Below, in pieces: positions 2,780 to 63,793 of a DNA stretch of 64,000 nt. Location: the NCBI GenBank assembly GCA_022376925.1, contig JAIOJX010000028.1, forward strand, positions 69,405,001 to 69,469,000. Direction: 5' to 3'. How positions within the stretch are numbered: the stretch's first letter is position 1; each line of letters begins with the position of its first letter. Both the position numbers and the translations under genes were made by a program. This DNA comes from Tragulus kanchil (lineage: Eukaryota; Chordata; Mammalia; Artiodactyla; Tragulidae). The notes under the pieces were generated by a model that saw only the letters and a program-made list of their open reading frames with translations, was not told the origin of the DNA and ran no database searches.

Positions 2780-3485
2780 ACTGGCTTAAAACTCAACATT
2801 CAACAACTTAGGATCATGGCATTCAATTCTGTCACTTCATGACAAATATAAGGGGAAAAAGGAAACAATAACAGATTTTTATTTTCTTGGGCTCCAAAAT
2901 CATTGCTGAGAGTAACTGCAGTCTTGAAATTAAAAGATGCTTACACCTTGGAAGAAAAACTATGACAAACCTAGACAGCATGTTTAAAAGTAAGGACATC
3001 ACTTTGCCAACAAAGGTCTGTATAGTTAAAACTACTTTCTCCATGTAGTCATGTACGGATGATATAGTCATGTACGCATGTGAGAGTTGGACCATAAAGA
3101 AGGCTGAGCACTGAGGAACTGATACTTTTAAATTGTAGTTCTGGAGAAGACTTGAGAGTCCTTGGACATCAGGAGATCAAAACAATCAATCCTAAAAGAA
3201 ATCAACCCTGAATATTCATTAGAAAGACTAATGCTGAAGATGAAGTTCCAATACTTTGGCCACCGGATGCAACGATCCTACTCATTGGAAAAGTCCCTGA
3301 GTCTGAGAGAGATTGAAGGCAGGAGAAAAAGGGGGTGACAGAAGATGAAATGGTTGCATAGCATCACTGACTCAGTGGACATGAGTTGGAGCTGTGAGAG
3401 ATAGTGAAGGACAGGGAAACCTGCTGTGCTACAATCCACGAGGTTTCAAAGAGGTGTACAGGACTTAGCAACTGAACAACAACAA
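2780..3485 (+). mobile_element. BovB LINE, 5'-truncated 3' end
   Basis: The sequence follows the last part of the ruminant BovB (RTE-clade) LINE in order. It has the stretch reading 'aactcaacattca', then the blocks around 'actttgccaacaaaggtc', 'tgagagttggaccataaag' and 'catcactgactcagtgg', and ends in 'agcaactgaacaac'. These encode the C-terminal end of the BovB reverse-transcriptase protein plus the short 3' tail. Frames are broken by stops and indels, so it is dead. A small internal duplication of about 19 bases containing 'tagtcatgtac' lies at 3045-3080. Most of the element is repeated at 3903-4573. Confidence 0.9.
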
Positions 3486-3536
3486 AATAACTTTACAAGA
3501 GGAAAAAGCTTTTTATTTTCATTTTTTAAAAAATCA

Positions 3537-3764
3537 GGGGACTTCCCTGGTAGTCCAGTGGTGAAGAACCTGACCTGCAATGCAGGGGGTGTGGGTTCAA
3601 TCCCTGGCCAGGCAACTAATATCCCACATACCTTGGACCAACTAAGTCCACGCACCATAACTAAAGAGTTTGTGCACCACAAGGAAAGATCTCACATGAT
3701 GCAATGAAGCTCCTGTGCACTACGACTAAGACCTGATGCAGCCAAATAAATAAATAAACAAATA
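3537..3764 (+). mobile_element. CHR-type tRNA-Glu SINE
   Basis: It starts with the tRNA-derived head 'acttccctggtagtccagtg' and has a B-box-like 'gggttcaatccctgg'. It continues through 'ccaactaagtccacgcacc' and 'gatgcagccaaataaataa' to an (AAAT)n tail. The body is the older, cattle-like CHR-2 layout, unlike the C-rich subtype elsewhere in this window. The copy at 4625-4851 belongs to the duplicated block. Confidence 0.85.
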
Positions 3765-3902
3765 TTTTTTAAATATCAAAATACATTGGAAAATCATGGC
3801 CATTTAGTATATTTGTTAATTAACATTGTTGGAAAACTAAACAAATATAAAGTTTAAGACTTCTTTTCTGTTCAGAACATATGAGCATAACTTTTAAAAT
3901 TT

Positions 3903-4573
3903 TCATGGCATTCAATTCTGTCACTTCATGACAAATATAAGGGAAAAGGAAACAATAACAGATTTTTATTTTCTTGGGCTCCAAAATCATTGCTGAGAGT
4001 AACTGCAGTCTTGAAATTAAAAGATGCTTACACCTTGGAAGAAAAACTATGACAAACCTAGACAGCATGTTTAAAAGTAAGGACATCACTTTGCCAACAA
4101 AGGTCTGTATAGTTAAAACTACTTTCTCCATGTAGTCATGTACGGATGATATAGTCATGTACGCATGTGAGAGTTGGACCATAAAGAAGGCTGAGCACTG
4201 AGGAACTGATACTTTTAAATTGTAGTTCTGGAGAAGACTTGAGAGTCCTTGGACATCAGGAGATCAAAACAATCAATCCTAAAAGAAATCAACCCTGAAT
4301 ATTCATTAGAAAGACTAATGCTGAAGATGAAGTTCCAATACTTTGGCCACCGGATGCAACGATCCTACTCATTGGAAAAGTCCCTGAGTCTGAGAGAGAT
4401 TGAAGGCAGGAGAAAAAGGGGGTGACAGAAGATGAAATGGTTGCATAGCATCACTGACTCAGTGGACATGAGTTGGAGCTGTGAGAGATAGTGAAGGACA
4501 GGGAAACCTGCTGTGCTACAATCCACGAGGTTTCAAAGAGGTGTACAGGACTTAGCAACTGAACAACAACAAA
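3903..4573 (+). mobile_element. BovB 3' end, second copy (duplication 1)
   Basis: Near-identical to 2814-3485. It starts abruptly inside the element at the block junction, so it is not an independent insertion. Confidence 0.9.
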
Positions 4574-4624
4574 ATAACTTTACAAGGGGAAAAAAGCTTT
4601 TTATTTTCATTTTTTAAAAAATCA

Positions 4625-4851
4625 GGGGACTTCCCTGGTAGTCCAGTGGTGAAGAACCTGACCTGCAATGCAGGGGGTGTGGGTTCAATCCCTGGCCAGG
4701 CAACTAATATCCCACATACCTTGGACCAACTAAGTCCACGCACCATAACTAAAGAGTTTGTGCACCACAAGGAAAGATCTCACATGATGCAATGAAGCTC
4801 CTGTGCACTACGACTAAGACCTGATGCAGCCAAATAAATAAATAAACAAAT
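4625..4851 (+). mobile_element. CHR-type SINE, second copy (duplication 1)
   Basis: Same element and same flanks as 3537-3764. It is part of copy B of the block, not a new insertion. Confidence 0.85.
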
Positions 4852-4895
4852 ATTTTTTAAATATCAAAATACATTGGAAAATCATGGCCATTTAG

Positions 4896-6966
4896 TATAT
4901 TTGTTAATTAACATTGTTGGAAAACTAAACAAATATAAAGTTTAAGACTTCTTTTCTGTTCAGAACATATGAGCATATGAACAGAATATAATCTGTTCTT
5001 ATGCTTCAGAACAGATTAAAATTACTTAATGGAATGAACTAGTTCCTGTGTTTTATTCATATTTAGGTTTTTAATGTTTTTTTTTCCTGTCAACTTTTCT
5101 CTTTCCCAAAGTTTCTAATAAAAAGGTTAACGCATATGTTTTCCACAAAAGAATGCTATTTGAATAATAAAAATAAACATGTAGATTTCAATTATTTAAG
5201 GATACTTTCTACTTGTAGGAAACCCACAAACCTGGGAAAAAACACTTTCAATAAAAGCTAAATATTAGACTGCTGGCATAAATTCTTTACTTCGCTCCTG
5301 TCTAGTCTTACTTAATTCTAATACTATGGTATTGGTCACTTAGAGGAAATCCAAATAAAATATTTTGGTCCAGTAAGTATCACAGTTCAAAAATACCATT
5401 AAACTTAAATTAAGTAGTCATTCTTCTGACACAATGGCTTAGAAAATTGGCCACCAAATTTGTTTTTCAAGGTAGACTGGAAATAGATCCAAGAAATTTA
5501 AATTTAGCTGGAAAGTGGTTTCTGTTTTTTGAATTTTTCTTCTATGCTTATCTTGTTATATTAATGTTCACTCTCCTCTCAGATGTTCTAGTGATGCTAA
5601 AAGAAATTATTTTATTAGAAAACTTTAATAAAACAGTGAGCTTAACATGTTTGTATTGATATAAAATTCTCCCCAAATATATTAAATGTTAACAGTAAGG
5701 TAGAGAATAATGTTCAGAGGGTTTATGTATATGGAAATAATTCCTACTATGAGTGTTTTGTCAACAATTATTATCTTATATTGAGATGAAAGTAGTAAAA
5801 TAGGAAGAGAATATGTTTTGTGCTCAATCCAAAACTGAATCTAATATTGCCCCTGCCAAAGTGTTGCAGTGTTTTTCTTAGTCAAAGTAATACTTCATAG
5901 AATTATTGTAATCACATATGCATGTTTTAAATTATTATATTTGTTAATTAACATTGTTGGAAAACTAAACAAATATAAAGTTTAAGACTTCTTTTCTGTT
6001 CAGAACATATGAGCATATGAACAGAATATAATCTGTTCTTATGCTTCAGAACAGATTAAAATTACTTAATGGAATGAACTAGTTCCTGTGTTTTATTCAT
6101 ATTTAGGTTTTTAATGTTTTTTTTTCCTGTCAACTTTTCTCTTTTCCAAAGTTTCTAATAAAAGGTTAACGCATATGTTTTCCACAAAAGAATGCTATTT
6201 GAATAAAAAAAATAAACATGTAGATTTCAATTATTTAAGGATACTTTCTACTTGTAGGAAACCCACAAACCTGGGAAAAAACACTTTCAATAAAAGCTAA
6301 ATATTAGACTGCTGGCATAAATTCTTTACTTCGCTCCTGTCTAGTCTTACTTAATTCTAATACTATGGTATTGGTCACTTAGAGGAAATCCAAATAAAAT
6401 ATTTTGGTCCAGTAAGTATCACAGTTCAAAAATACCATTAAACTTAAATTAAGTAGTCATTCTTCTGACACAATGGCTTAGAAAATTGGCCACCAAATTT
6501 GTTTTTCAAGGTAGACTGGAAATAGATCCAAGAAATTTAAATTTAGCTGGAAAGTGGTTTCTGTTTTTTGAATTTTTCTTCTATGCTTATCTTGTTATAT
6601 TAATGTTCACTCTCCTCTCAGATGTTCTAGTGATGCTAAAAGAAATTATTTTATTAGAAAACTTTAATAAAACAGTGAGCTTAACATGTTTGTATTGATA
6701 TAAAATTCTCCCCAAATATATTAAATGTTAACAGTAAGGTAGAGAATAATGTTCAGAGGGTTTATGTATATGGAAATAATTCCTACTATGAGTGTTTTTG
6801 TCAACAATTATTATCTTATATTGAGATGAAAGTAGTAAAATAGGAAGAGAATATGTTTTGTGCTCAATCCAAAACTGAATCTAATATTGCCCCTGCCAAA
6901 GTGTTGCAGTGTTTTTCTTAGTCAAAGTAATACTTCATAGAATTATTGTAATCACATATGCATGTA
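4896..6966 (+). repeat. Tandem duplication 2 (about 1.04 kb unit)
   Basis: Copy A is about 4896-5938 and copy B about 5936-6966, with microhomology around 'aaattattata' at the junction. The content is unique AT-rich DNA. A 70-codon open frame at 5447-5659 reappears at 6486-6698 only because of the block. It has no recognisable domain. Differences are mostly homopolymer lengths, for example near 5760 versus 6799. Confidence 0.95.
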
Positions 6967-7324
6967 AATTATTATACCTTTAGCATTTATATTTAGAGTG
7001 AAATCTTCAGATTATATGACATATAACTCATGATTTCATCTTAATACCATTCAGAAATATAGTAAATAAATTAGATTTAATATATAAATCAATATAATTA
7101 AGCACTGATTAAGGGGTTTTATAAGATTTTAATGAAAATATGAGCATAGAATAATCTTGATAATACATTTTTGCATCATTCTATTTGTAAGTGGCATTAG
7201 CACAGTGACTGAGTTAAAAAAAAAAAAACACACTGATGACTAATATGAGATGCCTCTTTGTTTATATTCTGTCAAAGCTCATGTTAGCTTAGTGTACCTG
7301 TCAAAGCAAACAAAGCAAAGTTAC
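6967..7324. other. Unique AT-rich DNA
   Basis: A short unique stretch with an A run near 7217-7228. Nothing else is recognisable. Confidence 0.5.
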
Positions 7325-12202: not shown

Positions 12203-12449
12203 TTCTTGATTTATGAATAGATCTGTTTTTAGGACAAATCTGGGTACAAGAAGCTCCAGATGATAATAGTTATACTTTCTTTATTCCAGACAGGAAATTT
12301 AGCGTCTTCACCTCAAGAATCAACACTCACCATAATGCTTTTTCTAAAACAAAACAAAAACCATCATGCCACCACTGAATTCCTTTCCATGATTTCTTTA
12401 GCCTTCTCCTGCATTCCTCCTACACTACCATCACTTTATTTACTTTATT

Positions 12450-12452
<3 letters not shown>

Positions 12453-12496
<44 letters not shown>
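12453..12496. repeat. (TA)n microsatellite
   Basis: About 22 uninterrupted TA units directly next to the 3' side of an antisense Bov-tA SINE. It probably grew from the SINE tail. It is repeated at 13633-13676. Confidence 0.95.
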
Positions 12497-12498
<2 letters not shown>

Positions 12499-12507
12499 TA
12501 TGTTCCA

Positions 12508-12760
12508 TCACTCAGTCATGTCTGACTCTATGTAACCCTGTGAACTGTAACCCACTAGGTTGCACTTTCCATGGAACTTTTCAGGTAAGTATACTGGAGT
12601 GAGTGGCCATTTTCTTCTCCGGGGATCTTCCAGACCCAGATATTCCAGGCAATCTTCCAGATCGTTCTCCAGGACAACCTTTCAGATATGGGATCAAACC
12701 ACATCTCCTGCATTTCCTGCAATGCGGGCAGATTCTTTACGACTGAGCCACCCAGGAAGT
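12508..12760 (-). mobile_element. Bov-tA SINE, antisense, with internal tandem part
   Basis: The plus strand reads 'ctcagtcatgtctgactc' first and ends 'gactgagccacccaggaag', the complement of a Bov-tA head. It is about 50 bases longer than a normal copy because the segment around 'atcttccaga' recurs near 12625 and 12652. Confidence 0.9.
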
Positions 12761-13629
12761 GTATGCATATATATATTTGTATTATGTCTTGGTGCTTTAT
12801 TTTGTCCTCTTTAAAGTATTTTTTTTATTGCTTGATTTCTAGGGAGAGAATGGACATTTTAATTTTAGTTTCAAACCAGAAAGAAAACTCAATTTATATG
12901 TTCAAATGAGAAAAAAAGATGCATCATTTTAACATCTTGGTGAGATGATTGAGTTTTAAAAGTTTATACTATAGCAGATACTTAATTTCCTAGAAAGTGT
13001 CAGCTTACAGATATCTAAATAATTTTTATATGAAGCTTGTCATTCTAAAAGGATAAATAAATATAGGTGCATACTGTGTCACCTGACACCACCTGTAGGT
13101 TAACAAGTATGGAGATACTTTGCCTGAAGCTAATCTGTTCCTTTTACCTTATATATTTATGAAATCAACTGCAAATGCAAAATTAGCAAATTATAACTTA
13201 CAGGACATCCTTGCAAAATTATGTACAGAGTAAGCAAAATCATAGATTCTGAGATCAAGCTAATCATTTTCTGGAGGAGATTTTGCATAATTTTCCTAGA
13301 TTTTAATATCTTGATTCAGATACCTTACCAAAAGAAATTGTTCTTCCCTAAGGTCACCTACAACACCTCACTGATCCAGGACACTTCTTGATTTATGAAT
13401 AGATCTGTTTAGGACAAATCTGGGTACAAGAAGCTCCAGATGATAATAGTTATACTTTCTTTATTCCAGACAGGAAATTTAGCGTCTTCACCTCAAGAAT
13501 CAACACTCACCATAATGCTTTTTCTAAAACAAAACAAAAACCATCATGCCACCACTGAATTCCTTTCCATGATTTCTTTAGCCTTCTCCTGCATTCCTCC
13601 TACACTACCATCACTTTATTTACTTTATT

Positions 13630-13632
<3 letters not shown>

Positions 13633-13676
<44 letters not shown>
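13633..13676. repeat. (TA)n microsatellite, second copy (duplication 3)
   Basis: Same array and flanks as 12453-12496. Confidence 0.95.
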
Positions 13677-13678
<2 letters not shown>

Positions 13679-13687
13679 TATGTTCCA

Positions 13688-13940
13688 TCACTCAGTCATG
13701 TCTGACTCTATGTAACCCTGTGAACTGTAACCCACTAGGTTGCACTTTCCATGGAACTTTTCAGGTAAGTATACTGGAGTGAGTGGCCATTTTCTTCTCC
13801 GGGGATCTTCCAGACCCAGATATTCCAGGCAATCTTCCAGATCGTTCTCCAGGACAACCTTTCAGATATGGGATCAAACCACATCTCCTGCATTTCCTGC
13901 AATGCGGGCAGATTCTTTACGACTGAGCCACCCAGGAAGT
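13688..13940 (-). mobile_element. Bov-tA SINE, antisense, second copy (duplication 3)
   Basis: Identical by eye to 12508-12760. It is part of copy B of the block. Confidence 0.9.
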
Positions 13941-14446
13941 GTATGCATATATATATTTGTATTATGTCTTGGTGCTTTATTTTGTCCTCTTTAAAGTATT
14001 TTTTTTATTGCTTGATTTCTAGGGAGAGAATGGACATTTTAATTTTAGTTTCAAACCAGAAAGAAAACTCAATTTATATGTTCAAATGAGAAAAAAAGAT
14101 GCATCATTTTAACATCTTGGTGAGATGATTGAGTTTTAAAAGTTTATACTATAGCAGATACTTAATTTCCTAGAAAGTGTCAGCTTACAGATATCTAAAT
14201 AATTTTTATATGAAGCTTGTCATTCTAAAAGGATAAATAAATATAGGTGCATACTGTGTCACCTGACACCACCTGTAGGTTAACAAGTATGGAGATACTT
14301 TGCCTGAAGCTAATCTGTTCCTTTTACCTTATATATTTATGAAATCAACTGCAAATGCAAAATTAGCAAATTATAACTTACAGGACATCCTTGCAAAATT
14401 ATGTACAGAGTAAGCAAAATCATAGATTCTGAGATCAAGCTAATCA

Positions 14447-16552
14447 TTTTCTGGAGGAGATTTTGCATAATTTTCCTAGATTTTAATATCTTGATTCAGA
14501 TACCTTACCAAAAGAAATTGTTCTTCCCTAAGGTCACCTACAACACCTCACTGATCCAGGACACTTTTATATTTTTAGAATGAAAACTTTTGAAACTCAT
14601 TATTTTTGTGATAATAGAATTTGAGTCTGACCTACCCAGTTCTCTGATGGTTCACAGTGCTATAAATTTTTACAGTGGTTGATTGGGTTCACTGGGTTTA
14701 GAAACAGTGTAAAAGGAACTGGCTTCAGAATGGATCCAAAGTTCAATCATGGTCTTTGTACCAAAATGTATAGGGTCAGTGATAAAGCAAATTCTTCAAT
14801 ACGGTCTATGTCTTATTTATACAAGCAAACTAAATTATACTTAAGGTGATTTAAACTGCATTATAATAATCTCTCAATCACATGCTATAGATATCGTACC
14901 TAAAAAGAAAAAATTCTGGTGGAAACTGGGGGCAGGAGAATCAAAATGGCAGAGTAGAAGTATGTGGAGCTCACCTCCTCTGAAAAATACATTAAAAATA
15001 CGTCTACATGTGAAACAATTCTCACAGAATACCTACTGGAAGTTCTCAAAGCTGCAGGAATGATCCTCACATAATGAAGTCAGACCAAGGGAAACAAAGA
15101 GAAGAGGAATAAAGACAGAGCAGTGAAGGAGAAAATGTCCCGTGTCTCTGGAACCCTCCTTCACCAGCTGGAAGGTCTGTCAGGACAGATAAGGAGTGCA
15201 GAGGCTAGAGAGGAGAATGTGCGAGCAGACTTGTGGCCCTGAAATAAACAAATGGTACCTAATCAAACTTACAAGTTTTATACAGCAAAGGAGATCATAA
15301 ACAAAACAGAAAAAAAGGAAACCTATGAACTGGGAAAATATATTTACAAACAATACAACCAACAAGGGCTTAATTTCCAAAATCTCTTTATCCAAGAAGA
15401 CACATGGATGGCTAACAAACACATGAGAAGATGCTCATCATCACTAATTATTAGAGAAAAGCAAATTTCTTTATCCCATTGGTCAGAAGAAAACACATGG
15501 ATGGCCTAACTAACATAAATGAGATCAAGCTTTTCTGGAGGAGATTTTGCATAATTTTCCTAGATTTTAATATCTTGATTCAGATACCTTACCAAAAGAA
15601 ATTGTTCTTCCCTAAGGTCACCTACAACACCTCACTGATCCAGGACACTTTTATATTTTTAGAATGAAAACTTTTGAAACTCATTATTTTTGTGATAATA
15701 GAATTTGAGTCTGACCTACCCAGTTCTCTGATGGTTCACAGTGCTATAAATTTTTACAGTGGTTGATTGGGTTCACTGGGTTTAGAAACAGTGTAAAAGG
15801 AACTGGCTTCAGAATGGATCCAAAGTTCAATCATGGTCTTTGTACCAAAATGTATAGGGTCAGTGATAAAGCAAATTCTTCAATACGGTCTATGTCTTAT
15901 TTATACAAGCAAACTAAATTATACTTAAGGTGATTTAAACTGCATTATAATAATCTCTCAATCACATGCTATAGATATCGTACCTAAAAAGAAAAAATTC
16001 TGGTGGAAACTGGGGGCAGGAGAATCAAAATGGCAGAGTAGAAGTATGTGGAGCTCACCTCCTCTGAAAAATACATTAAAAATACGTCTACATGTGAAAC
16101 AATTCTCACAGAATACCTACTGGAAGTTCTCAAAGCTGCAGGAATGATCCTCACATAATGAAGTCAGACCAAGGGAAACAAAGAGAAGAGGAATAAAGAC
16201 AGAGCAGTGAAGGAGAAAATGTCCCGTGTCTCTGGAACCCTCCTTCACCAGCTGGAAGGTCTGTCAGGACAGATAAGGAGTGCAGAGGCTAGAGAGGAGA
16301 ATGTGCGAGCAGACTTGTGGCCCTGAAATAAACAAATGGTACCTAATCAAACTTACAAGTTTTATACAGCAAAGGAGATCATAAACAAAACAGAAAAAAA
16401 GGAAACCTATGAACTGGGAAAATATATTTACAAACAATACAACCAACAAGGGCTTAATTTCCAAAAATCTCTTTATCCAAGAAGACACATGGATGGCTAA
16501 CAAACACATGAGAAGATGCTCATCATCACTAATTATTAGAGAAAAGCAAATT
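14447..16552 (+). repeat. Tandem duplication 4 (about 1.02 kb unit)
   Basis: Copy A is 14447-15467 and copy B 15531-16552. Between them lie 63 bases (15468-15530) that contain a degraded piece of the true downstream sequence ('cattggtcagaa', also at 16576) and a stray copy of 'acacatggatggc'. The first ~120 bases of the unit are also the end of duplication 3, so they occur three times. Confidence 0.93.
14928..15467 (+). mobile_element. L1 with 5' end fused to ORF2 C-terminus, first copy
   Basis: 14928 to about 15240 resembles an L1 5' UTR ('aaaatggcagagtag', 'gagctcacctcctctg'). From about 15245 the sequence is the end of L1 ORF2: 'acctaatcaaacttacaag', then 'aagggcttaatttcc' and 'gatgctcatcatcactaatt'. 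Almost all of ORF1 and ORF2 is missing between them. This copy is cut off at the block junction. The complete version starts at 16012. Confidence 0.8.
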
Positions 16553-18240: not shown

Positions 18241-18309
18241 TCATTTGCATACCTGAGGTAACTGATATTTCCTTCAGCACTCTTCTTTTTTTTTTTTTCC
18301 TCCAGCACT

Positions 18310-19135: not shown

Positions 19136-19417
19136 TGAGTTCAGAGACACTTCATCCAAAGAGCAATACCTTCTTCTCCAGGACAGGGTTTATACTCCAT
19201 GAGGCCTGTCTGTAATTTCTTGAGTCTTAATAATTCCTTCCTCTTGGCATTTTCCCCAGATCTAAGAGGGTTTCCTCAGATCTAGGAGGGATCTACTTCC
19301 TGCGACTGCCACCTCCTTGATATCTTAAAATCTCTTATTATCTTAGAAGCCACCTAGCCCTAAACAAAAAAAAGGTTTCTTCATTTGCATACCTGAGCAC
19401 TCCTTCTTTTTTTGCCT

Positions 19418-38992: not shown

Positions 38993-38999
38993 AAAGTAG

Positions 39000-47511: not shown

Positions 47512-48504
47512 CAAATGCCAATAAAAACATATATATTGATAATTATCTTTAAAATAAGTGGATTAAATGTGCCAACCAAAAGACACAGATTGGCTGAACA
47601 AATACAGAAATAAGATCCATAGGCATGCTGTCAACAAGAGAGACCCACTTCATGTCTAGAGACACATACAGCTTGATAGTGATGGAAAATGGTATTCTAT
47701 GCAAATGGATATCAAAAGAAACATGAAGTAGCAGTTCCCTTATCAGATAAAACAGAATTTAAAATGAAAACTGTTACAAGAAGCAAAGAAAAACATGACC
47801 TAATGATCAAGGGATCAATTCCAGGATAATATATGATAGCTGTTAATATACATCACCCAACATATGAGCACATCAACATATAAGGCAAATACTAACAACC
47901 ATAGAAATAGAAGTGGATAGCAACACAAAAATAATGGGGAACTTTAGCACCCCAGTTACATCAATGGATAGATCATCCAGACAGAAAAATCAATAAATGG
48001 GCTTAAATAACATATTAGATCACTAAACTAAATTGATATTCATACAACATTCCATTTAAAAGCAGCAGAATACATTTTTTTTCTCAAGTGCACACACAAC
48101 ACTCTCCAGGATAGATCATACCTTGGGCTACAAAGCAAGCCTCAATAAATTTTAAGAAAAATTGAAATAATATCAAGCATCTTTTCCAACTACAATGCTT
48201 TCAGATTAGAAATATACTATAGAATAAAACTGTAAAAAATGCAAATGTAGAGGCTAAACAATGGCATAAACAACCAATGGATCACTGAAGAAACCAGAAA
48301 GGAAATTTTAAAATACCTAGTGACAAACGATAATGAGAACACAATGGTTCAAAGTGTATGGGACACAGAAAAAATGCAGTACTTTGAAGGAAGTTTATAG
48401 TAATACAATCTTACCTTAGGAAATAAGAAAAAAAAATCAAATAAAAGCCCTAACCTTACACTAAAAGCCAGAATTAATAGAAGAATTTATAAAGATTAGA
48501 GCAT
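47512..48504 (+). mobile_element. L1 ORF2 fragment, endonuclease region
   Basis: 'aagtggattaaatgtgccaa', 'agagacccacttcatgtc', 'gatcaagggatcaattcc', 'agatcatccagacag' and 'caggatagatcatacc' follow the order of the artiodactyl L1 ORF2 apurinic-type endonuclease and the linker after it. The start is 5'-truncated, and stops break the frame. It continues into the RT region at 49611. Confidence 0.92.
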
Positions 48505-48571
48505 TAAATGAGTGTGTACTTGATAGTTGAAAGAAATGGATCTTAAGATTTCCCAGATCAAAACAATTAAA

Positions 48572-49614
48572 AACAAAAGAAGAAGAAAAAAGACCTACAA
48601 AACAAATTCAAAACAATTAACCAAATGCCAATAAAAACATATATATTGATAATTATCTTTAAAATAAGTGGATTAAATGTGCCAACCAAAAGACACAGAT
48701 TGGCTGAACAAATACAGAAATAAGATCCATAGGCATGCTGTCAACAAGAGAGACCCACTTCATGTCTAGAGACACATACAGCTTGATAGTGATGGAAAAT
48801 GGTATTCTATGCAAATGGATATCAAAAGAAACATGAAGTAGCAGTTCCCTTATCAGATAAAACAGAATTTAAAATGAAAACTGTTACAAGAAGCAAAGAA
48901 AAACATGACCTAATGATCAAGGGATCAATTCCAGGATAATATATGATAGCTGTTAATATACATCACCCAACATATGAGCACATCAACATATAAGGCAAAT
49001 ACTAACAACCATAGAAATAGAAGTGGATAGCAACACAAAAATAATGGGGAACTTTAGCACCCCAGTTACATCAATGGATAGATCATCCAGACAGAAAAAT
49101 CAATAAATGGGCTTAAATAACATATTAGATCACTAAACTAAATTGATATTCATACAACATTCCATTTAAAAGCAGCAGAATACATTTTTTTTCTCAAGTG
49201 CACACACAACACTCTCCAGGATAGATCATACCTTGGGCTACAAAGCAAGCCTCAATAAATTTTAAGAAAAATTGAAATAATATCAAGCATCTTTTCCAAC
49301 TACAATGCTTTCAGATTAGAAATATACTATAGAATAAAACTGTAAAAAATGCAAATGTAGAGGCTAAACAATGGCATAAACAACCAATGGATCACTGAAG
49401 AAACCAGAAAGGAAATTTTAAAATACCTAGTGACAAACGATAATGAGAACACAATGGTTCAAAGTGTATGGGACACAGAAAAAATGCAGTACTTTGAAGG
49501 AAGTTTATAGTAATACAATCTTACCTTAGGAAATAAGAAAAAAAAATCAAATAAAAGCCCTAACCTTACACTAAAAGCCAGAATTAATAGAAGAATTTAT
49601 AAAGATTAGAGCAT
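48572..49614 (+). mobile_element. L1 ORF2 endonuclease region, second copy (duplication 13)
   Basis: Near-identical to 47462-48504. It reads straight on into the reverse-transcriptase region, so this copy gives the true continuation of the element. Confidence 0.92.
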
Positions 49615-50708
49615 AAATAAATGAAACAGAGTCTAAGAAGACAATAGAAAGGACCAATGACATTAAAACTTGGTTCTTTGAAAAGATAAACAAAATGGAT
49701 AAACCTTTATCTAGACTCATCAGGAAAAAAAGGAAAGTCCAAGTTAATAAAACTAGAAATGAAAAAGGAATACTCACAGTTGACCCAACAGAAATACAAA
49801 GGACCATAAGAGACTACTACAAGCAACTCTATACGAATAAAATAGAAAACCTAGAAAAAAAAAAGGGAAAATTCCTGGAAAGGTACAATCTGCCAAAACT
49901 GAAACAGGGAGAAACAAAAATTGTGAACAAATCAATTACAAGTAAAGAAATTGAACCTGTGATTAAAAACTCCATTGAAACCAAAGCCCAGGACCAGATG
50001 ACTTCATAGGCAGATTCTACCAAACATTTAAAGATTTTATACCCTGTCCTTCAAAATTTACTGCCAAAAATTTCAAAGGAAGGAAAACATCTGAATGCAT
50101 TCTTTCAGGCCACCATCACCCTAACACCAAAATGAGACTAAAGCAAAAAAGAAAATTGAAGGCTGATAATCATTGATGATTATAGATTCAAATATACTAA
50201 CAATACAGTAAAGAATCATATACCATAATCAAGCAGGATTTACCTCAGAGATGCAATTTTTTTTCAATACCCACAAATCAATCAGTGTGACACACATTAA
50301 CAATTTGAGGAAGAATGTATTATTCCAATAAATGAAGAAAAGGTTTTTGATAAAATTCAATATCCATTTATGATAAAAACTCTCTAGAAAGCAGGCATAG
50401 AGGCAATATACCTCAACATAATAAACGTCATATTATGACAAACCAACAGTTAACATCATTCTTGATGGAGATAAGCTGAAAACATTTCTTCTAAGTTCAC
50501 AAACAAGACAAAGATGTCCACTCTCAACACTTTCATTCAACAGTTTTGGAAGTCTAACCATGGCAATCAGAGGAGAAAACCAAATAAAAGGGATCCAATT
50601 TGGAAAAGAGGTAAAACTACTACAGTTTGCAGATGACATGATACTATAAAAACAGAACAAACCATGATTTGGCAAACTAGCTGAATATAAAGTCTACATA
50701 CAGAAAGT
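49611..50708 (+). mobile_element. L1 ORF2 reverse-transcriptase region, first copy
   Basis: An open stretch at 49695-50009 encodes the N-terminal RT region (begins MDKPLSRLIRKKRKVQ, ends near KAQDQMTS). After that the frame is broken. The catalytic box is visible as 'tttgcagatgacatgatac' (FADDM) at about 50627. Two codons later comes a stop, so it is inactive. Confidence 0.92.
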
Positions 50709-51844
50709 ATTAGGGGGCATAAATAAATGAAACAGAGTCTAAGAAGACAATAGAAAGGACCAATGACATTAAAACTTGGTTCTTTGAAAAGATAAACAAA
50801 ATGGATAAACCTTTATCTAGACTCATCAGGAAAAAAAGGAAAGTCCAAGTTAATAAAACTAGAAATGAAAAAGGAATACTCACAGTTGACCCAACAGAAA
50901 TACAAAGGACCATAAGAGACTACTACAAGCAACTCTATACGAATAAAATAGAAAACCTAGAAAAAAAAAAGGGAAAATTCCTGGAAAGGTACAATCTGCC
51001 AAAACTGAAACAGGGAGAAACAAAAATTGTGAACAAATCAATTACAAGTAAAGAAATTGAACCTGTGATTAAAAACTCCATTGAAACCAAAGCCCAGGAC
51101 CAGATGACTTCATAGGCAGATTCTACCAAACATTTAAAGATTTTATACCCTGTCCTTCAAAATTTACTGCCAAAAATTTCAAAGGAAGGAAAACATCTGA
51201 ATGCATTCTTTCAGGCCACCATCACCCTAACACCAAAATGAGACTAAAGCAAAAAAGAAAATTGAAGGCTGATAATCATTGATGATTATAGATTCAAATA
51301 TACTAACAATACAGTAAAGAATCATATACCATAATCAAGCAGGATTTACCTCAGAGATGCAATTTTTTTTCAATACCCACAAATCAATCAGTGTGACACA
51401 CATTAACAATTTGAGGAAGAATGTATTATTCCAATAAATGAAGAAAAGGTTTTTGATAAAATTCAATATCCATTTATGATAAAAACTCTCTAGAAAGCAG
51501 GCATAGAGGCAATATACCTCAACATAATAAACGTCATATTATGACAAACCAACAGTTAACATCATTCTTGATGGAGATAAGCTGAAAACATTTCTTCTAA
51601 GTTCACAAACAAGACAAAGATGTCCACTCTCAACACTTTCATTCAACAGTTTTGGAAGTCTAACCATGGCAATCAGAGGAGAAAACCAAATAAAAGGGAT
51701 CCAATTTGGAAAAGAGGTAAAACTACTACAGTTTGCAGATGACATGATACTATAAACAGAACATCCTATGGACGCGCCAGAAAGCCACTAGAGATCACTG
51801 ATGAATTTGGCAAACTAGCTGAATATAAAGTCTACATACAGAAA
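49611..51844 (+). repeat. Tandem duplication 14 (about 1.1 kb unit)
   Basis: Copy A is 49611-50708 and copy B 50717-51844. Near its end copy A loses about 35 bases present in B (the stretch at 51766-51800), again a degraded end to the first copy. The content is the L1 reverse-transcriptase region. A 104-codon frame at 49695-50009 recurs at 50801-51115. Confidence 0.95.
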
Positions 51845-51925
51845 TTTGTTGTATTTCTATACTCTAACAAAAATATCATAAATTGAAATTAAGGAAATAA
51901 CTTAATTTACTCTCCCATAAAAAAG
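50717..51925 (+). mobile_element. L1 ORF2 RT region, second copy, running to the fragment's 3' end
   Basis: It repeats 49611-50708 and continues past the catalytic FADDM box (about 51731) through 'gaatttggcaaactagctga' to about 51925, where L1 similarity stops. The 3' end of ORF2 and the 3' UTR are absent, so the element is truncated at both ends. Confidence 0.9.
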
Positions 51926-53667
51926 TACTAGTAGATACTATACAGTAGTAGATACTATAATTGAAATGAATTGCTCAAGTAGCTTTTCCAAACTCTTTCT
52001 ATTGCAAGAAAGCTAAATATCACAGTTTCTAAATTTCCTTACAACCTGAGATTTAGATGTAATTTAGACTTCTACTACCAAACCCTGGATTTTGATCTGC
52101 ATTGTGTGCTAAGAGAAGAATGACACACTGTATCCATTTCTTTGGTTGTTTATCTTTTGTGCCAAAACTAATATAATACTCAAACCAGCTAATATGCAAC
52201 AATTTTGCAGTAGTTTTCTGACTCTCCAGTCAGTTTCCTAATTTGACAATTTCCTAACAGTGACAAACCCCATTGGCCCTGAGAGTTTAGGAGTTGCTTT
52301 GCTTTTTGTGGAACTTCTCATTTATAGCAGAGCTATAGCAAACTTGGTGGTCCAGTTTTATTATGAAGTGTATGAAATAACTCCCAGAAAATAAGCCTAG
52401 AGAAACGTCATTGGTCTTCCAGATGAATGTCCTTTAGTACACTGCTGTGTGATTGGTATATATTTCTATATCTAATGCTTTAACAGGAAAAAATGGAGTG
52501 CTTACTATTTAAAATGCTCACCATCTCTCTGACTCACATTAACAATTTGAGGAAGAATGTATTATTCCAATAAATGAAGAAAAGGTTTTTGATAAAATTC
52601 AATATCCATTTATGATAAAACTCTCTAGAAAGCAGGCATAGAGGCAATATACCTCAACATAATAAACGTCATATTATGACAAACCAACAGTTAACATCAT
52701 TCTTGATGGAGATAAGCTGAAAACATTTCTTCTAAGTTCACAAACAAGACAAAGATGTCCACTCTCAACACTTTCATTCAACAGTTTTGGAAGTCTAACC
52801 ATGGCAATCAGAGGAGAAAACCAAATAAAAGGGATCCAATTTGGAAAAGAGGTAAAACTACTACAGTTTGCAGATGACATGATACTATAAACAGAACATC
52901 CTATGGACGCGCCAGAAAGCCACTAGAGATCACTGATGAATTTGGCAAACTAGCTGAATATAAAGTCTACATACAGAAATTTGTTGTATTTCTATACTCT
53001 AACAAAAATATCATAAATTGAAATTAAGGAAATAACTTAATTTACTCTCCCATAAAAAAGTACTAGTAGATACTATACAGTAGTAGATACTATAATTGAA
53101 ATGAATTGCTCAAGTAGCTTTTCCAAACTCTTTCTATTGCAAGAAAGCTAAATATCACAGTTTCTAAATTTCCTTACAACCTGAGATTTAGATGTAATTT
53201 AGACTTCTACTACCAAACCCTGGATTTTGATCTGCATTGTGTGCTAAGAGAAGAATGACACACTGTATCCATTTCTTTGGTTGTTTATCTTTTGTGCCAA
53301 AACTAATATAATACTCAAACCAGCTAATATGCAACAATTTTGCAGTAGTTTTCTGACTCTCCAGTCAGTTTCCTAATTTGACAATTTCCTAACAGTGACA
53401 AACCCCATTGGCCCTGAGAGTTTAGGAGTTGCTTTGCTTTTTGTGGAACTTCTCATTTATAGCAGAGCTATAGCAAACTTGGTGGTCCAGTTTTATTATG
53501 AAGTGTATGAAATAACTCCCAGAAAATAAGCCTAGAGAAACGTCATTGGTCTTCCAGATGAATGTCCTTTAGTACACTGCTGTGTGATTGGTATATATTT
53601 CTATATCTAATGCTTTAACAGGAAAAAATGGAGTGCTTACTATTTAAAATGCTCACCATCTCTCTGA
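51399..53667 (+). repeat. Tandem duplication 15 (about 1.13 kb unit)
   Basis: Copy A is 51399-52532 and copy B 52535-53667. The join has the short shared 'ctctctga' / 'cacattaac' context and almost no spacer. One A is lost near 52619. The first part is L1 RT, which therefore occurs three times (50292, 51399, 52535). The rest is unique DNA. Confidence 0.95.
52535..53062 (+). mobile_element. L1 ORF2 RT fragment, third copy
   Basis: It starts abruptly at the block junction in the middle of the RT domain and includes the FADDM box (about 52866). It owes its existence to the overlap of duplications 14 and 15. It is not a separate insertion. Confidence 0.9.
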
Positions 53668-55537
53668 ACTGTTTTCAGTTTCCCATTGCCTGTTTCTTTA
53701 AACACGCTGTCAGAACTATAGTCTCACTTTAAATCAGTAAAGTGTTATCTGGGTTTTCAGTGTTTAATTTCAAATGTATTTTCCTATGGAAATTGCTCCA
53801 TTCATTGAGATAATGTGACACCAAATTACAAGCTCTGTGCAGCTGTCACTCTTTGCCAGGCATTCAGAAATATAAATGAAAACTGACATGCCATTTATCT
53901 GACAAATCTCTGTCACCAGTAATAGTATCACTGGGTTTAGTACATTACCAGCTTTGAAAATATGTAAATTAAAAAGGAAAACTGAAAATAACTTTGTGTA
54001 TAAGAATAAAAGCGTACAACTAGTACTGGTATCAGTCATATTTTAGTTTGCAATTGGGAAAACTCAAGGTACTATATGTGAAAATGAATGTTGTACTAGA
54101 AGAGGAAGAATCTTTTTTTAAGTGAATAGAGCTCCTGGTAGCTATAATATGAATGTTGCGCTTCTAAAAACAAAATTTTAACTTAACTCCTTATATTTGT
54201 TTAAAGACTTATCATATACAGAGTAGTTATATATCCACAACTTTTATGAAATTCATGAATTTCCTTGTATTTTTTAAACTGAAGGATAATAGCTTCACAG
54301 AGTTGTGTGGTTTACGGCCAAACATCAACATGAATCAGCCACAGGTGTACATACATTCCCTCCCTCCTAAAGTTCCCTCCGTCATGAATTTTCATTTTAC
54401 CAATTTGGAAATTGGATCTCAGAGCATAAATCACAACTTTTGATGAAGATTCATGAATATTGCCTTGATTTTTTTTCAAACTAATTAATTGCGCTTATAT
54501 ATTTCTATATCTAATCCCCTTTGAGAGTTTAGGAGTTGCTTTGCTTTTTGTGGAACTTCTCATTTATAGCAGAGCTATAGCAAACTTGGTGGTCCAGTTT
54601 TATTATGAAGTGTATGAAATAACTCCCAGAAAATAAGCCTAGAGAAACGTCATTGGTCTTCCAGATGAATGTCCTTTAGTACACTGCTGTGTGATTGGTA
54701 TATATTTCTATATCTAATGCTTTAACAGGAAAAAATGGAGTGCTTACTATTTAAAATGCTCACCATCTCTCTGAACTGTTTTCAGTTTCCCATTGCCTGT
54801 TTCTTTAAACACGCTGTCAGAACTATAGTCTCACTTTAAATCAGTAAAGTGTTATCTGGGTTTTCAGTGTTTAATTTCAAATGTATTTTCCTATGGAAAT
54901 TGCTCCATTCATTGAGATAATGTGACACCAAATTACAAGCTCTGTGCAGCTGTCACTCTTTGCCAGGCATTCAGAAATATAAATGAAAACTGACATGCCA
55001 TTTATCTGACAAATCTCTGTCACCAGTAATAGTATCACTGGGTTTAGTACATTACCAGCTTTGAAAATATGTAAATTAAAAAGGAAAACTGAAAATAACT
55101 TTGTGTATAAGAATAAAAGCGTACAACTAGTACTGGTATCAGTCATATTTTAGTTTGCAATTGGGAAAACTCAAGGTACTATATGTGAAAATGAATGTTG
55201 TACTAGAAGAGGAAGAATCTTTTTTTAAGTGAATAGAGCTCCTGGTAGCTATAATATGAATGTTGCGCTTCTAAAAACAAAATTTTAACTTAACTCCTTA
55301 TATTTGTTTAAAGACTTATCATATACAGAGTAGTTATATATCCACAACTTTTATGAAATTCATGAATTTCCTTGTATTTTTTTTAAACTGAAGGATAATA
55401 GCTTCACAGAGTTGTGTGGTTTACGGCCAAACATCAACATGAATCAGCCACAGGTGTACATACATTCCCTCCCTCCTAAAGTTCCCTCCCGTCATGAATT
55501 TTCATTTTACCAATTTGGAAATTGGATCTCAGAGCAT
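53415..55537 (+). repeat. Tandem duplication 16 (about 1.01 kb unit)
   Basis: Copy A is 53415-54427 and copy B 54522-55537. The 94-base bridge (54428-54521) is informative. Its first half is an insertion-ridden version of the nearby 54234-54284, and its second half contains 'tatatttctatatctaat', taken from about 53596. The unit is unique DNA with no recognised gene. The 89-codon frame (53770-54039) recurs at 54877-55146. Confidence 0.94.
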
Positions 55538-57550
55538 TAAATAACTTCTTTCTATGTTCCTGGATGACAAGTGTTAATATTAAAACAAGAAGATAGAAGG
55601 TATGTCTTGTTAGTCTAATGTTCGTATTTTGTATTCCATTGCCTCTCCTGCTTATTCACTTTGATTTTTATTTCATAAGTCTTTCAGACAGGTTTCGAAT
55701 CATAGTTTAATGTTTATTTTCACATATGATAAATAAATTTGTAGTAAACAAAGGGAACACATTTTAATATGATAATTTTTCATTGAAACCTGAAATTTTT
55801 TCATTATGCTTATTAATACCACTTGTATTTGTATATTTTATTTCCTGAAGTCCAATTTCATAAATATAAGAAATACTACTATAGGATGAACAACCTCTAT
55901 CAAAAGGTCAAGATCATAGCAGTCATGCCATATGTAATAAAATTGTCAAATAAAGTAATAACCCCAGGATAAAACAGAGATAATTAAAAATTAATGGATG
56001 TTTTTTATCATTTGACTAATGAGTCTTTTATATTAATATACATGAATACATATAGGAAAAACATATGATAAAACAAATTAAATGTATTACATAGAAATTG
56101 AATTCAAATTTGTAATGAAAATGTTTTCTATACATTACTCTGTTTCTAGAATCAGCTGATGTGAGATTTTATTAAGGATTTTTAAATGCTGTAAATGGAA
56201 CCTCATTGTTGATTTAACACATTCCAGATTAACTGACATTCACAGCCAATTCAGAGTCAAGCTTTTATTAAAAATTTTCCTTAAAGTGCTCTAACTCTTT
56301 GGATGGGTAAAGTTAAAGGTCAAACTCTTTTCATAAATTAAGCTGACAAAGTAAAATGCCAATATAAAACAGCTACATAACTTTCTCAACGTGTAGTCTC
56401 TTTAAACCAACTAACAAATTTTAACTCCTTATATTTGTTTAAAGACTTATCATATACAGAGTAGTTATATATCCACAACTTTTATGAAATTCATGAATTT
56501 CCTTGTATTTTTTAAACTGAAGGATAATAGCTTCACAGAGTTGTGTGGTTTACGGCCAAACATCAACATGAATCAGCCACAGGTGTACATACATTCCCTC
56601 CCTCCTAAAGTTCCCTCCCGTCATGAATTTTCATTTTACCAATTTGGAAATTGGATCTCAGAGCATTAAATAACTTCTTTCTATGTTCCTGGATGACAAG
56701 TGTTAATATTAAAACAAGAAGATAGAAGGTATGTCTTGTTAGTCTAATGTTCGTATTTTGTATTCCATTGCCTCTCCTGCTTATTCACTTTGATTTTTAT
56801 TTCATAAGTCTTTCAGACAGGTTTCGAATCATAGTTTAATGTTTATTTTCACATATGATAAATAAATTTGTAGTAAACAAAGGGAACACATTTTAATATG
56901 ATAATTTTTCATTGAAACCTGAAATTTTTTCATTATGCTTATTAATACCACTTGTATTTGTATATTTTATTTCCTGAAGTCCAATTTCATAAATATAAGA
57001 AATACTACTATAGGATGAACAACCTCTATCAAAAGGTCAAGATCATAGCAGTCATGCCATATGTAATAAAATTGTCAAATAAAGTAATAACCCCAGGATA
57101 AAACAGAGATAATTAAAAATTAATGGATGTTTTTTATCATTTGACTAATGAGTCTTTTATATTAATATACATGAATACATATAGGAAAAACATATGATAA
57201 AACAAATTAAATGTATTACATAGAAATTGAATTCAAATTTGTAATGAAAATGTTTTCTATACATTACTCTGTTTCTAGAATCAGCTGATGTGAGATTTTA
57301 TTAAGGATTTTTAAATGCTGTAAATGGAACCTCATTGTTGATTTAACACATTCCAGATTAACTGACATTCACAGCCAATTCAGAGTCAAGCTTTTATTAA
57401 AAATTTTCCTTAAAGTGCTCTAACTCTTTGGATGGGTAAAGTTAAAGGTCAAACTCTTTTCATAAATTAAGCTGACAAAGTAAAATGCCAATATAAAACA
57501 GCTACATAACTTTCTCAACGTGTAGTCTCTTTAAACCAACTAACAAATTT
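55290..57550 (+). repeat. Tandem duplication 17 (about 1.13 kb unit)
   Basis: Copy A is 55290-56420 and copy B 56421-57550, joined without spacer. A T run is two bases longer in A (about 55375) than in B (about 56507). It is unique AT-rich DNA with no recognised gene. The first ~250 bases are also in duplication 16 and occur three times (54181, 55290, 56421). Confidence 0.95.
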
Positions 57551-60583: not shown

Positions 60584-60595
60584 ATATTGACAATT

Positions 60596-60899
60596 TTATC
60601 AGATCAAAAAAGAGCATTCCAGTGTTATATGAAAATCATTCAACTTTAAAAATCCTTTCTACTATATCAAATTAAGCTATTTTCTTGTAAGATTTCAGGA
60701 TTTAAAAACCCCAACTAATTCAAGGTATAAGTATTTGCTGTTTTGTTGTGTGTGTTTGGTCACCATGTGGTACAAATATATATATTTTCAATTTCTTACT
60801 TAACTAAACATGAAGTAATCTTTTTATGATATATTCAGAGGGTTAACATTTTACAATTAAAATAACTAGGCATAGATAGGCTGATTCCCCAGAAGTTAC
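60596..60899. other. Unique AT-rich DNA
   Basis: No recognised repeat or gene. Confidence 0.4.
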
Positions 60900-61235
60900 C
60901 ATATTTAACATTTAACACAATGTGTTCTAATAAGCACTGTCAAGAAAACATAATCTACTTTATACCTGGGAATTTGTACCTTTTGACCCCCTTCATTCAA
61001 TAGTAGACATCATGATGACTACGATTAATAAAACTATTGCATATTTGAAAGTTGCTAAGAGAGTAGACCTTAGAAGTCTTCATCACATGAAATTTTTTTT
61101 TTTTGTATCTAGTTTGGTGATGAATGTTAACTACACTTAAAACAGGCATAATTTTGCAGTATATCCTAATAACAAATCATTATATCATACACATGAAATC
61201 AGTGTGTTACATGTCAATTATACCTCAATAACAAG
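60900..61235 (+). mobile_element. Ancient L1M-type 3' end
   Basis: 'atttgtaccttttgaccccc', 'attgcatatttgaaagttgc', 'taagagagtagaccttag', 'gatgaatgttaactacac' and 'tgtcaattatacctcaat' follow the order of the 3' UTR of old mammalian L1M elements, including the closing 'cctcaata' motif. Confidence 0.8.
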
Positions 61236-61587
61236 ATAATGACACATTCCTTGGAGTATAACAGATTAGTGCTGCCATCAAACACTTGAAAGCTAAAACT
61301 ATGTAAATTCCTACAAAATACGTTTACCTCTGATTGGTAAAGGTAAAAACCTTTGATTGTGAAGACTGCAGATATTACAAATTAAAGACTGGTGTTGATC
61401 ACTGTTTGATTATAATGGGCATTGTTGGATTTGTTATTAGTCTTGGAAAAAGTTTTCTGATTTCCTATATCTGTCATGAGGTTATTGACAAGCAACTGTT
61501 TCATTACTGTTTCATTGCCATATGTAACAATAAAAATATGAAGAATGAATGTATTTTTCCATCAGTTTGGAATGTGAAAGGAGTCAC
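61236..61587. other. Unique DNA with a 92-codon open frame
   Basis: A frame at 61334-61612 (+) has one hydrophobic stretch (about residues 25-48) and several cysteines. I recognise no family, no splice context and no conserved start. It runs across the start of duplication 18. Most likely a chance frame. Confidence 0.35.
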
Positions 61588-63793
61588 TAGACTAAAGTAC
61601 ATACTAACATGAGACTTTTATTTAAGGATAATCAATAGAGAGCAAGAAATGAAAGAAAATTCAGGCAAGTATCAAGAATCTCTGGAGAATCTCTACCTTT
61701 GTTCACTCCTCTGAGTTTCTGTCTTCAACACCCATGATGTTTGCCAGGCAAATTGACTTTGAAAGAGTTCAGGGAGTTCTCAGTGGGGGACCCTTGGTCA
61801 ATAGTCCCCTTGGTCAGTAATCAAGCCACATCTGTCAGACTAATTAGGTGGTTTGCAAACCATTAATCTGTACAGGTTATTCATTTAGTCACTTATTCAT
61901 TTATTTAGTCACTGAGCCTAGGCCTTACCCCATGAAGATGACAAAACTCTGGGTTCAATTTTAGTCTCCATTCCCTGATTCTTCTATACCCTTTTCTCTT
62001 TCCTGACACAGTATATTTGACTTGGTGACATATTATTCAGTCATGTTTGCCCATATTTGCTATCTTCTCACAAGTTATTAGATTATTTCATGGTACTTAA
62101 ATGAACATGTTAATAATGATTCTCAAATTTACACATAAAATCTATTTTTTTCCTGACTTCCAGTTCTTAGGTGTAATTGTTTACTGTTTACTCCCAGTAA
62201 ACATTCAGCAACCATTTAAAGCTTAGTGTCTCTGCAGTGATACTAATCATATCCTGTGAAGCTGCCCTTCCTTCTGTTTTCCTATTTCAGTGCATAACAT
62301 GAGAGCACACTTAGAGGGTCACATTATAAATGAACTCTAATCAATTCCTTATTTCTTTTACACCCCCATCCAATCTACCATCTGAAAATGTTGAGTCTCC
62401 TTTTTTGTTGGGTTCACTGAATATTTGGTAATTTAATAAGACAAAGTCTAACATGGTTTCTAATAATGTAGGACATTTTCCTTATCTAGGGATATAAAAG
62501 TAGACAGATGGAAAAAAAGGCACTAGCCTGCCTTGAGCCTATCTCAAAGTTCTTGTTGTCATTTTGTCACTAATTTGTATTTGACTCTTGCAGCTCCATG
62601 GACTGTAACCTGTGAGGCTCTTCTGTCCAAAAAATTTTTTTCCCCAGGGCTCTCCTAACCAGGGATTGAACCTAGACTAAAGTACATACTAACATGAGAC
62701 TTTTATTTAAGGATAATCAATAGAGAGCAAGAAATGAAAGAAAATTCAGGCAAGTATCAAGAATCTCTGGAGAATCTCTACCTTTGTTCACTCCTCTGAG
62801 TTTCTGTCTTCAACACCCATGATGTTTGCCAGGCAAATTGACTTTGAAAGAGTTCAGGGAGTTCTCAGTGGGGGACCCTTGGTCAATAGTCCCCTTGGTC
62901 AGTAATCAAGCCACATCTGTCAGACTAATTAGGTGGTTTGCAAACCATTAATCTGTACAGGTTATTCATTTAGTCACTTATTCATTTATTTAGTCACTGA
63001 GCCTAGGCCTTACCCCATGAAGATGACAAAACTCTGGGTTCAATTTTAGTCTCCATTCCCTGATTCTTCTATACCCTTTTCTCTTTCCTGACACAGTATA
63101 TTTGACTTGGTGACATATTATTCAGTCATGTTTGCCCATATTTGCTATCTTCTCACAAGTTATTAGATTATTTCATGGTACTTAAATGAACATGTTAATA
63201 ATGATTCTCAAATTTACACATAAAATCTATTTTTTTCCTGACTTCCAGTTCTTAGGTGTAATTGTTTACTGTTTACTCCCAGTAAACATTCAGCAACCAT
63301 TTAAAGCTTAGTGTCTCTGCAGTGATACTAATCATATCCTGTGAAGCTGCCCTTCCTTCTGTTTTCCTATTTCAGTGCATAACATGAGAGCACACTTAGA
63401 GGGTCACATTATAAATGAACTCTAATCAATTCCTTATTTCTTTTACACCCCCATCCAATCTACCATCTGAAAATGTTGAGTCTCCTTTTTTGTTGGGTTC
63501 ACTGAATATTTGGTAATTTAATAAGACAAAGTCTAACATGGTTTCTAATAATGTAGGACATTTTCCTTATCTAGGGATATAAAAGTAGACAGATGGAAAA
63601 AAAGGCACTAGCCTGCCTTGAGCCTATCTCAAAGTTCTTGTTGTCATTTTGTCACTAATTTGTATTTGACTCTTGCAGCTCCATGGACTGTAACCTGTGA
63701 GGCTCTTCTGTCCATTGGATTTCCCAGACAAGAATACTGGAATGGGTTGACACTTCCTTCTCTAGAGGCTCTCCCTAACCAGGGATTGAACCT
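61588..63793 (+). repeat. Tandem duplication 18 (about 1.09-1.12 kb unit)
   Basis: Copy A is 61588-62673 and copy B 62672-63793. Copy A is about 36 bases shorter because its end, inside an antisense Bov-tA, is garbled at 62630-62660 (A and T runs replace real SINE sequence). Copy B reads cleanly. The rest is unique DNA with no recognised gene. Confidence 0.95.
62556..62673 (-). mobile_element. Bov-tA SINE, antisense, garbled first copy
   Basis: It matches the first part of 63641-63843, then decays into homopolymers before 'ccagggattgaacct'. It is cut off at the block junction. Confidence 0.85.

What the first reader, a model, noticed from the sequence alone, without database searches (positions are those of the whole stretch)
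2814..63793. Eighteen independent ~1.1 kb direct tandem duplications in 61 kb
Seen directly: 18 unrelated stretches each occur twice, adjacent and in the same orientation, at near identity. Unit lengths are all between about 0.97 and 1.18 kb, although the content varies from BovB and L1 to SINEs and unique DNA. About 19-20 kb of the window is second-copy sequence. No known transposon or recombination process makes many unrelated tandem copies of one fixed size. The likeliest cause is overlaps between adjacent contigs or gap-fill reads that were joined without trimming. A real burst of size-limited tandem duplication would be remarkable, but I rate it unlikely.
Basis: partly seen in the sequence, partly recalled or inferred. 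Interest (0 to 1): 0.75.

Follow-up and report, generated by a model that had tools for sequence, protein, structure and literature searches.

The report
Genome-wide assembly stutter, 1.1-kb repeats
The eighteen side-by-side copies are really in the sequence file but almost certainly not in the animal: wherever sampled, this assembly tends to write overlapping pieces of about 1.1 kb twice, which makes it too long.

Summary
Observation confirmed: 18 direct, head-to-tail pairs, offsets 973-1182 bp, identity 99.0-100%, 30.6% of the window second-copy. They are not local. Of 18 other 10-kb stretches on 18 contigs of the same 3.167-Gb assembly, 17 hold the same kind of pair (44 pairs). The 55 pairs counted as full-length have mean offset 1109 bp, SD 38. 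Of 91 myosin-motor matches in the genome, 42 sit in pairs 1061-1160 bp apart. About 25% of the sampled sequence outside the window is second copy, implying a true size near 2.37 Gb (small sample).

Differences between copies look like independent consensus calls: in the core, indels outnumber substitutions 54 to 25, and differences are about tenfold denser within 60 bp of the copy ends. Once collapsed, the 36 measured junction spacings are at least 700 bp and cluster near 0.7-1.04 and 1.6-2.1 kb; the clustering is only suggestive.

Best explanation: overlapping consensus tiles written end to end without merging the shared node, as a wtdbg/wtdbg2-type assembler with 1024-bp nodes could do. The artefact is near certain; the software is inferred.

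The parts
2814..4977 (.). pair 1: 2814-3889 repeated at 3903-4977
   Evidence: 99.6% identity, offset 1089
4892..6976 (.). pair 2: 4892-5939 repeated at 5932-6976
   Evidence: 99.2%, offset 1040
12203..14566 (.). pair 3: 12203-13386 repeated at 13385-14566
   Evidence: 99.8%, offset 1182
14447..16552 (.). pair 4: 14447-15467 repeated at 15531-16552
   Evidence: 99.9%, offset 1084; 63 unaligned bases between copies
18288..20482 (.). pair 5: 18288-19369 repeated at 19404-20482
   Evidence: 99.5%, offset 1116; 34 unaligned bases between copies, 17 of them matching sequence upstream of copy 1
30129..32325 (.). pair 6: 30129-31228 repeated at 31218-32325
   Evidence: 99.1%, offset 1089
32192..34405 (.). 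pair 7: 32192-33298 repeated at 33299-34405
   Evidence: 100%, offset 1107
34156..36445 (.). pair 8: 34156-35296 repeated at 35299-36445
   Evidence: 99.0%, offset 1143; core difference is an AT-repeat length change
37063..39019 (.). pair 9: 37063-38046 repeated at 38036-39019
   Evidence: 100%, offset 973
39982..42201 (.). pair 10: 39982-41092 repeated at 41090-42201
   Evidence: 99.6%, offset 1108
42029..44306 (.). pair 11: 42029-43170 repeated at 43170-44306
   Evidence: 99.6%, offset 1141
45324..47528 (.). pair 12: 45324-46411 repeated at 46441-47528
   Evidence: 99.6%, offset 1117
47462..49618 (.). pair 13: 47462-48509 repeated at 48572-49618
   Evidence: 99.9%, offset 1110; bases between the copies match sequence just upstream of copy 1
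49611..51763 (.). pair 14: 49611-50659 repeated at 50717-51763
   Evidence: 99.8%, offset 1106; bases between the copies match sequence just downstream of copy 2
51394..53667 (.). pair 15: 51394-52532 repeated at 52530-53667
   Evidence: 99.8%, offset 1136
53415..55542 (.). pair 16: 53415-54431 repeated at 54522-55542
   Evidence: 99.6%, offset 1107; T-run near 54270 differs in length between copies
55290..57550 (.). pair 17: 55290-56421 repeated at 56421-57550
   Evidence: 99.8%, offset 1131; the same T-run differs again between these copies
61587..63714 (.). pair 18: 61587-62629 repeated at 62672-63714
   Evidence: 100%, offset 1085

Best explanation
An assembly artefact spread through the assembly: neighbouring pieces of consensus that overlap by about 1.1 kb were written one after the other without removing the overlap. 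Most likely a long-read assembler laid the genome out as a path of nodes, called a consensus for each edge (a node and the next node), and for many neighbouring edges failed to merge the shared node. Each failure writes one node twice. The size and spacing fit a fuzzy-Bruijn-graph assembler of the wtdbg/wtdbg2 type, whose nodes are 1024 bases of raw read. The untrimmed overlap is what the sequence shows; the particular software is inferred (about 0.75-0.8), and the confidence given here is for the artefact.
For: (1) Spread: 17 of 18 other stretches, 44 pairs. (2) One size: 55 pairs counted as full-length (18 window, 37 other), mean offset 1109, SD 38, range 973-1194; one of the 55 (in L026) starts 4 bases from the stretch's edge and is probably cut, which does not affect its offset. 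(3) Coding sequence is hit alike: 42 of 91 myosin-head matches lie in 21 same-domain pairs, on 5 contigs; all 21 such pairs found within 5 kb are 1061-1160 bp apart, measured between match ends. (4) A SINE-like stretch: by my count from the table, 22 of 38 matches outside the window are in pairs 1085-1190 bp apart, on 8 contigs. (5) Error type: in 53,423 aligned core bases 54 indel events (30 in mono- or dinucleotide runs) against 25 substitutions; within 60 bp of the ends 102 differences in 6,498 bases. (6) One T-run reads short, long, short in three successive copies. (7) Collapsed junction spacing: minimum 700; 18 of 36 at 700-1040, none at 1041-1599, 9 at 1600-2115, 9 longer. (8) Where steps are shorter than the overlap, tile i shares its end with the start of tile i+2, as overlapping tiles must. 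(9) Node length of 1024 bp in wtdbg2: a methods passage of PMC7506008.
Against: One of the 18 stretches (L027, unplaced 263-kb contig C12) has no pair, and 20483-30128 of the window lies in none, so failure is not uniform. The overlap is about 1109 bp, not 1024; deletion-biased reads or slack at tile edges would explain this, untested. The clustering of spacings is only suggestive: 700 of 20,000 random sets show as large a gap near the middle of the distribution, 2338 of 20,000 with a looser test. Some differences at copy ends may be forced alignment past a tile's true end, so the tenfold figure may be too high. The assembler behind this genome is not known to me, and no reads were available.
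Confidence: 0.97

Rival explanations
1. Same artefact class, different software (a rival to the named software, not to the artefact): untrimmed overlaps from gap-filling, contig merging or chunk-wise polishing rather than from an assembler's node consensus.
For: Any tool that concatenates overlapping chunks gives tandem copies. Chunk stitching with overlap removal is described for MarginPolish in a passage of PMC7483855.
Against: Chunks of fixed coordinates should give a near-constant overlap and regular spacing; here overlaps vary from 973 to 1194 and spacing is irregular but with a floor of 700 bp. Gap filling is unlikely to touch a quarter of the sequence.
Confidence: 0.2
2. Haplotype-based false duplication: both alleles of a heterozygous locus placed in tandem.
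For: This is a known class of false duplication (passages of PMC9516828).
Against: Core differences are mainly indels: 54 against 25 substitutions in 53.4 kb. Three of the window's 18 pairs are 100% identical over 984-1107 bp. Allelic copies have no reason to be of one length.
Confidence: 0.01
3. Real tandem duplications of about 1.1 kb throughout the genome, made by a size-limited mechanism.
For: The copies are truly head-to-tail and nearly identical in the file.
Against: It would need several hundred thousand events of one size (arithmetic from 44 pairs in 180 kb), all recent, in coding sequence too, with differences that resemble consensus noise and cluster at copy ends. At 95% and 300 bp no dispersed copies within the 19 sequences apart from the shared tile ends about 2.2 kb apart, and none inverted or between them.
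Confidence: 0.005

Closest known systems
Homotype false duplications in long-read assemblies (Ko et al. 2022, PMC9516828; VGP paper PMC8081667)
   Same: Under-collapsed copies of one sequence caused by read errors, not by alleles (12 of 37 matching places of PMC9516828 seen; PMC8081667 seen in search listings only)
   Different: Here the copies are adjacent, of about 1.1 kb, and make up about a quarter of the sampled sequence. The passages I saw do not describe a fixed-size form.
False segmental duplications from mis-assembly (Kelley and Salzberg 2010, PMC2864568)
   Same: Apparent recent duplications created by assembly (search listing with start of abstract only)
   Different: That abstract speaks of divergent chromosomes of a diploid; here the copies show no clear allelic pattern.
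wtdbg2 fuzzy-Bruijn-graph assembly
   Same: Nodes are 1024-bp stretches of read (methods passage of PMC7506008). That each edge's consensus shares a node with its neighbour, and that nodes are built of 256-bp bins, is recalled, from no call.
   Different: Merging of neighbouring edges normally succeeds (recalled). I saw no published account of failure on this scale; my literature searches were narrow.

Membership tests
Untrimmed overlapping-tile assembly artefact | Copies adjacent, same orientation, near-identical | tested here: met
Untrimmed overlapping-tile assembly artefact | Independent of sequence content and present across the assembly | tested here: met
   17 of 18 stretches; coding matches too, 42 of 91
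Untrimmed overlapping-tile assembly artefact | Copy differences are consensus errors (run-length indels, worse at tile ends) | tested here: met
   core 54 indels (30 in runs) against 25 substitutions; 102 differences in 6,498 end bases against 79 in 53,423 core bases
Untrimmed overlapping-tile assembly artefact | Reads skip one copy; depth about half in each copy | not testable with these tools
   no reads held
wtdbg/wtdbg2 node artefact | Duplicated unit corresponds to a 1024-bp node | tested here: inconclusive
   mean 1109, SD 38, about 8% longer than 1024
wtdbg/wtdbg2 node artefact | Junctions fall on a grid of node steps | tested here: inconclusive
   pattern fits; null reaches it in 3.5% or 11.7% of sets
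wtdbg/wtdbg2 node artefact | Assembly record names the software | not testable with these tools
Real tandem duplication | Divergence dominated by substitutions and spread evenly along the copies (general knowledge) | tested here: not met
   core 25 substitutions against 54 indels; denser at the ends. All 55 pairs are 97.6-100% identical

The most novel reading that the evidence does not exclude
The animal's genome really carries hundreds of thousands of recent 1.1-kb tandem duplications produced by a replication or repair process with a fixed length.
Probability: 0.004. Interest if true: 0.97.

Novelty: not a real feature. Interest (0 to 1): 0.08.

Why it matters
Biologically it does not. Practically it does: if the sample is representative, this chromosome-scale assembly is about a third too long (3.167 Gb against an implied 2.37 Gb), with coding sequence written twice in places. 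Gene models, exon counts, repeat landscapes, duplication scans and read mapping on it would suffer until the tiles are collapsed. Other findings of tandem copies of 1.0-1.2 kb from this assembly should be discounted.

Tried and rejected
Haplotype duplication, fixed-coordinate polishing chunks and real duplication were considered and rejected for the reasons given under the rivals. Pfam gave no family over its cut-off for the two copies of the 130-residue frame at 49617 and 50723 (weak matches below cut-off, best E 0.0047), so the L1 label for it is only recalled resemblance. Rfam gave no match in the window at gathering scores. The species was not identified: the 16 contigs over 70 Mb whose lengths I saw add up to about 3.15 of 3.167 Gb (summed by hand), which suggests few, large chromosomes; a guess at giraffe or another ruminant with a wtdbg assembly led nowhere (of PMC12621783 I saw passages only). 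The spacing-grid test was weaker than it looked by eye. Of 62 pairs in the window and stretches (18 and 44), 7 cut by a stretch edge, interrupted by N or shorter than 900 bp were left out of the size and error counts, and pairs whose aligned copies lay more than 150 bp apart were left out of the spacings. Literature searches for this exact fault. One search returned none; in the listings of the others I saw no paper on it, but of the papers in them I opened only PMC7483855, for passages.
Full report
What is there. Self-alignment of the window gives 18 long direct pairs. Each pair is adjacent (aligned copies -11 to +90 bp apart), identity is 99.0-100%, offsets are 973-1182 with mean 1104 and SD 44, and second-copy sequence is 30.6% of the window. 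In several places a shorter stretch occurs three times, the first and third copies about 2.1-2.3 kb apart. Random sequences of the same composition give none (0 pairs in 20 sequences).

It is not local. The window is 69405001-69469000 of contig C23 in an unnamed 3.167-Gb, 32-contig assembly. I fetched 18 more 10-kb stretches, one on each of 18 other contigs, at places chosen by round coordinates without looking (13 of 20 asked, the other 7 not existing; 5 of 5). Seventeen of 18 contain the same kind of pair, 44 pairs in all; the exception is L027 on a 263-kb unplaced contig. The 37 pairs counted as full-length outside the window and the 18 within it pool to a mean offset of 1109 bp, SD 38, range 973-1194; one of the 37 starts 4 bases from its stretch's edge and is probably cut. 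Second-copy sequence is 45,182 of 178,394 bases other than N outside the window (25.3%), which would bring 3.167 Gb down to about 2.37 Gb; the sample is small, so this is rough. At 95% and 300 bp, no direct pair with another offset was found in the window and the 18 stretches except the shared ends about 2.2 kb apart, no inverted pair was found, and nothing matched between the sequences.

Genes are hit in the same way. The myosin motor domain (PF00063) gave 91 matches in the genome. Same-domain matches lying within 5 kb of each other form 21 pairs, which take in 42 of the 91; all 21 are 1061-1160 bp apart (between match ends), on five contigs. The tool scored 65 of 518 first candidates, so the rate is not a census, and some matches are not intact exons (several contain stops). 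A SINE-like stretch from the window behaves alike: by my count from the table, 11 pairs (22 of the 38 matches outside the window, on eight contigs) are 1085-1190 bp apart; there too only the best 40 of 1833 candidates were scored.

The differences between copies look like consensus noise. Over the 55 pairs, 53,423 aligned core bases hold 54 indel events, 30 of them in mono- or dinucleotide runs, and 25 substitutions; a few messy spots contribute several events each. The outer 60 bp at each end hold 102 differences in 6,498 bases, about ten times the density; part of this may be alignment forced past a tile's true end. Evolved mammalian duplicates show mostly substitutions (general knowledge, not tested here). 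One T-run is short, long and short in three successive copies of the same place. In 8 of 18 window pairs 13-90 bases between the copies do not align at first. In three of these (pairs 5, 13 and 14) part of them matches the sequence just upstream of copy 1 or just downstream of copy 2, as expected if tiles extend a little beyond the clean alignment; the other five gave no convincing match.

The geometry is that of overlapping tiles. With one unit removed at each junction, the 36 successive junction spacings that could be measured have a minimum of 700 bp; 18 are 700-1040, none 1041-1599, 9 are 1600-2115 and 9 are longer. Exponential spacing with the same mean would leave no spacing below 700 with a probability of about 6e-6. 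The gap between the two clusters is less secure: 700 of 20,000 shifted-exponential sets have as large a gap in the middle of the distribution, and 2338 of 20,000 by a looser criterion. So the floor is firm and the grid is suggestive.

Mechanism. A methods passage on wtdbg2 says that each point of its graph is a 1024-bp stretch of read (PMC7506008). From recall: consensus is computed per edge, that is for two neighbouring nodes and what lies between, and successive edges share a node that must be merged. If merging fails, one node is written twice, tiles of about two nodes follow each other, and tiles i and i+2 share a short end when nodes overlap. The sequence shows each of these outcomes. The duplicated unit is about 8% longer than 1024; deletion-biased raw reads or slack at tile edges would explain that, but I could not test it. 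I put the artefact at 0.97 or higher and this software family at about 0.75-0.8.

Known kinds. False duplication in assemblies is well described, including a homotype class caused by read errors (passages of PMC9516828). I did not see this exact fixed-size form in my searches, which were narrow and cover open-licence papers only.

Limits. No reads, no related assembly and no record of the assembly method were available. 

Noticed in passing
G000:C12:120001-130000 (L027): Only sampled stretch without a pair; an unplaced 263-kb contig, perhaps assembled or filled differently.
   Followed up: no
window 20483-30128: The longest run of the window outside any pair, about 9.6 kb; why merging succeeded there is not known.
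   Followed up: no
window 49617-50009 and 50723-51115: An open frame of 130 residues that looks by recall like part of an L1 ORF2, present in both copies of pair 14; no Pfam family over its cut-off.
   Followed up: partly
G000:C14: Contig length is exactly 200,000 bases, which suggests that it was cut mechanically.
   Followed up: no
window 12453-12496, 13633-13676, 39130-39228: Long TA/AT dinucleotide runs; the first two are the two copies within pair 3.
   Followed up: no
window 17362-17436: ARAGORN calls one tRNA-like stretch without a clear anticodon, possibly a tRNA-derived SINE; not examined.
   Followed up: no
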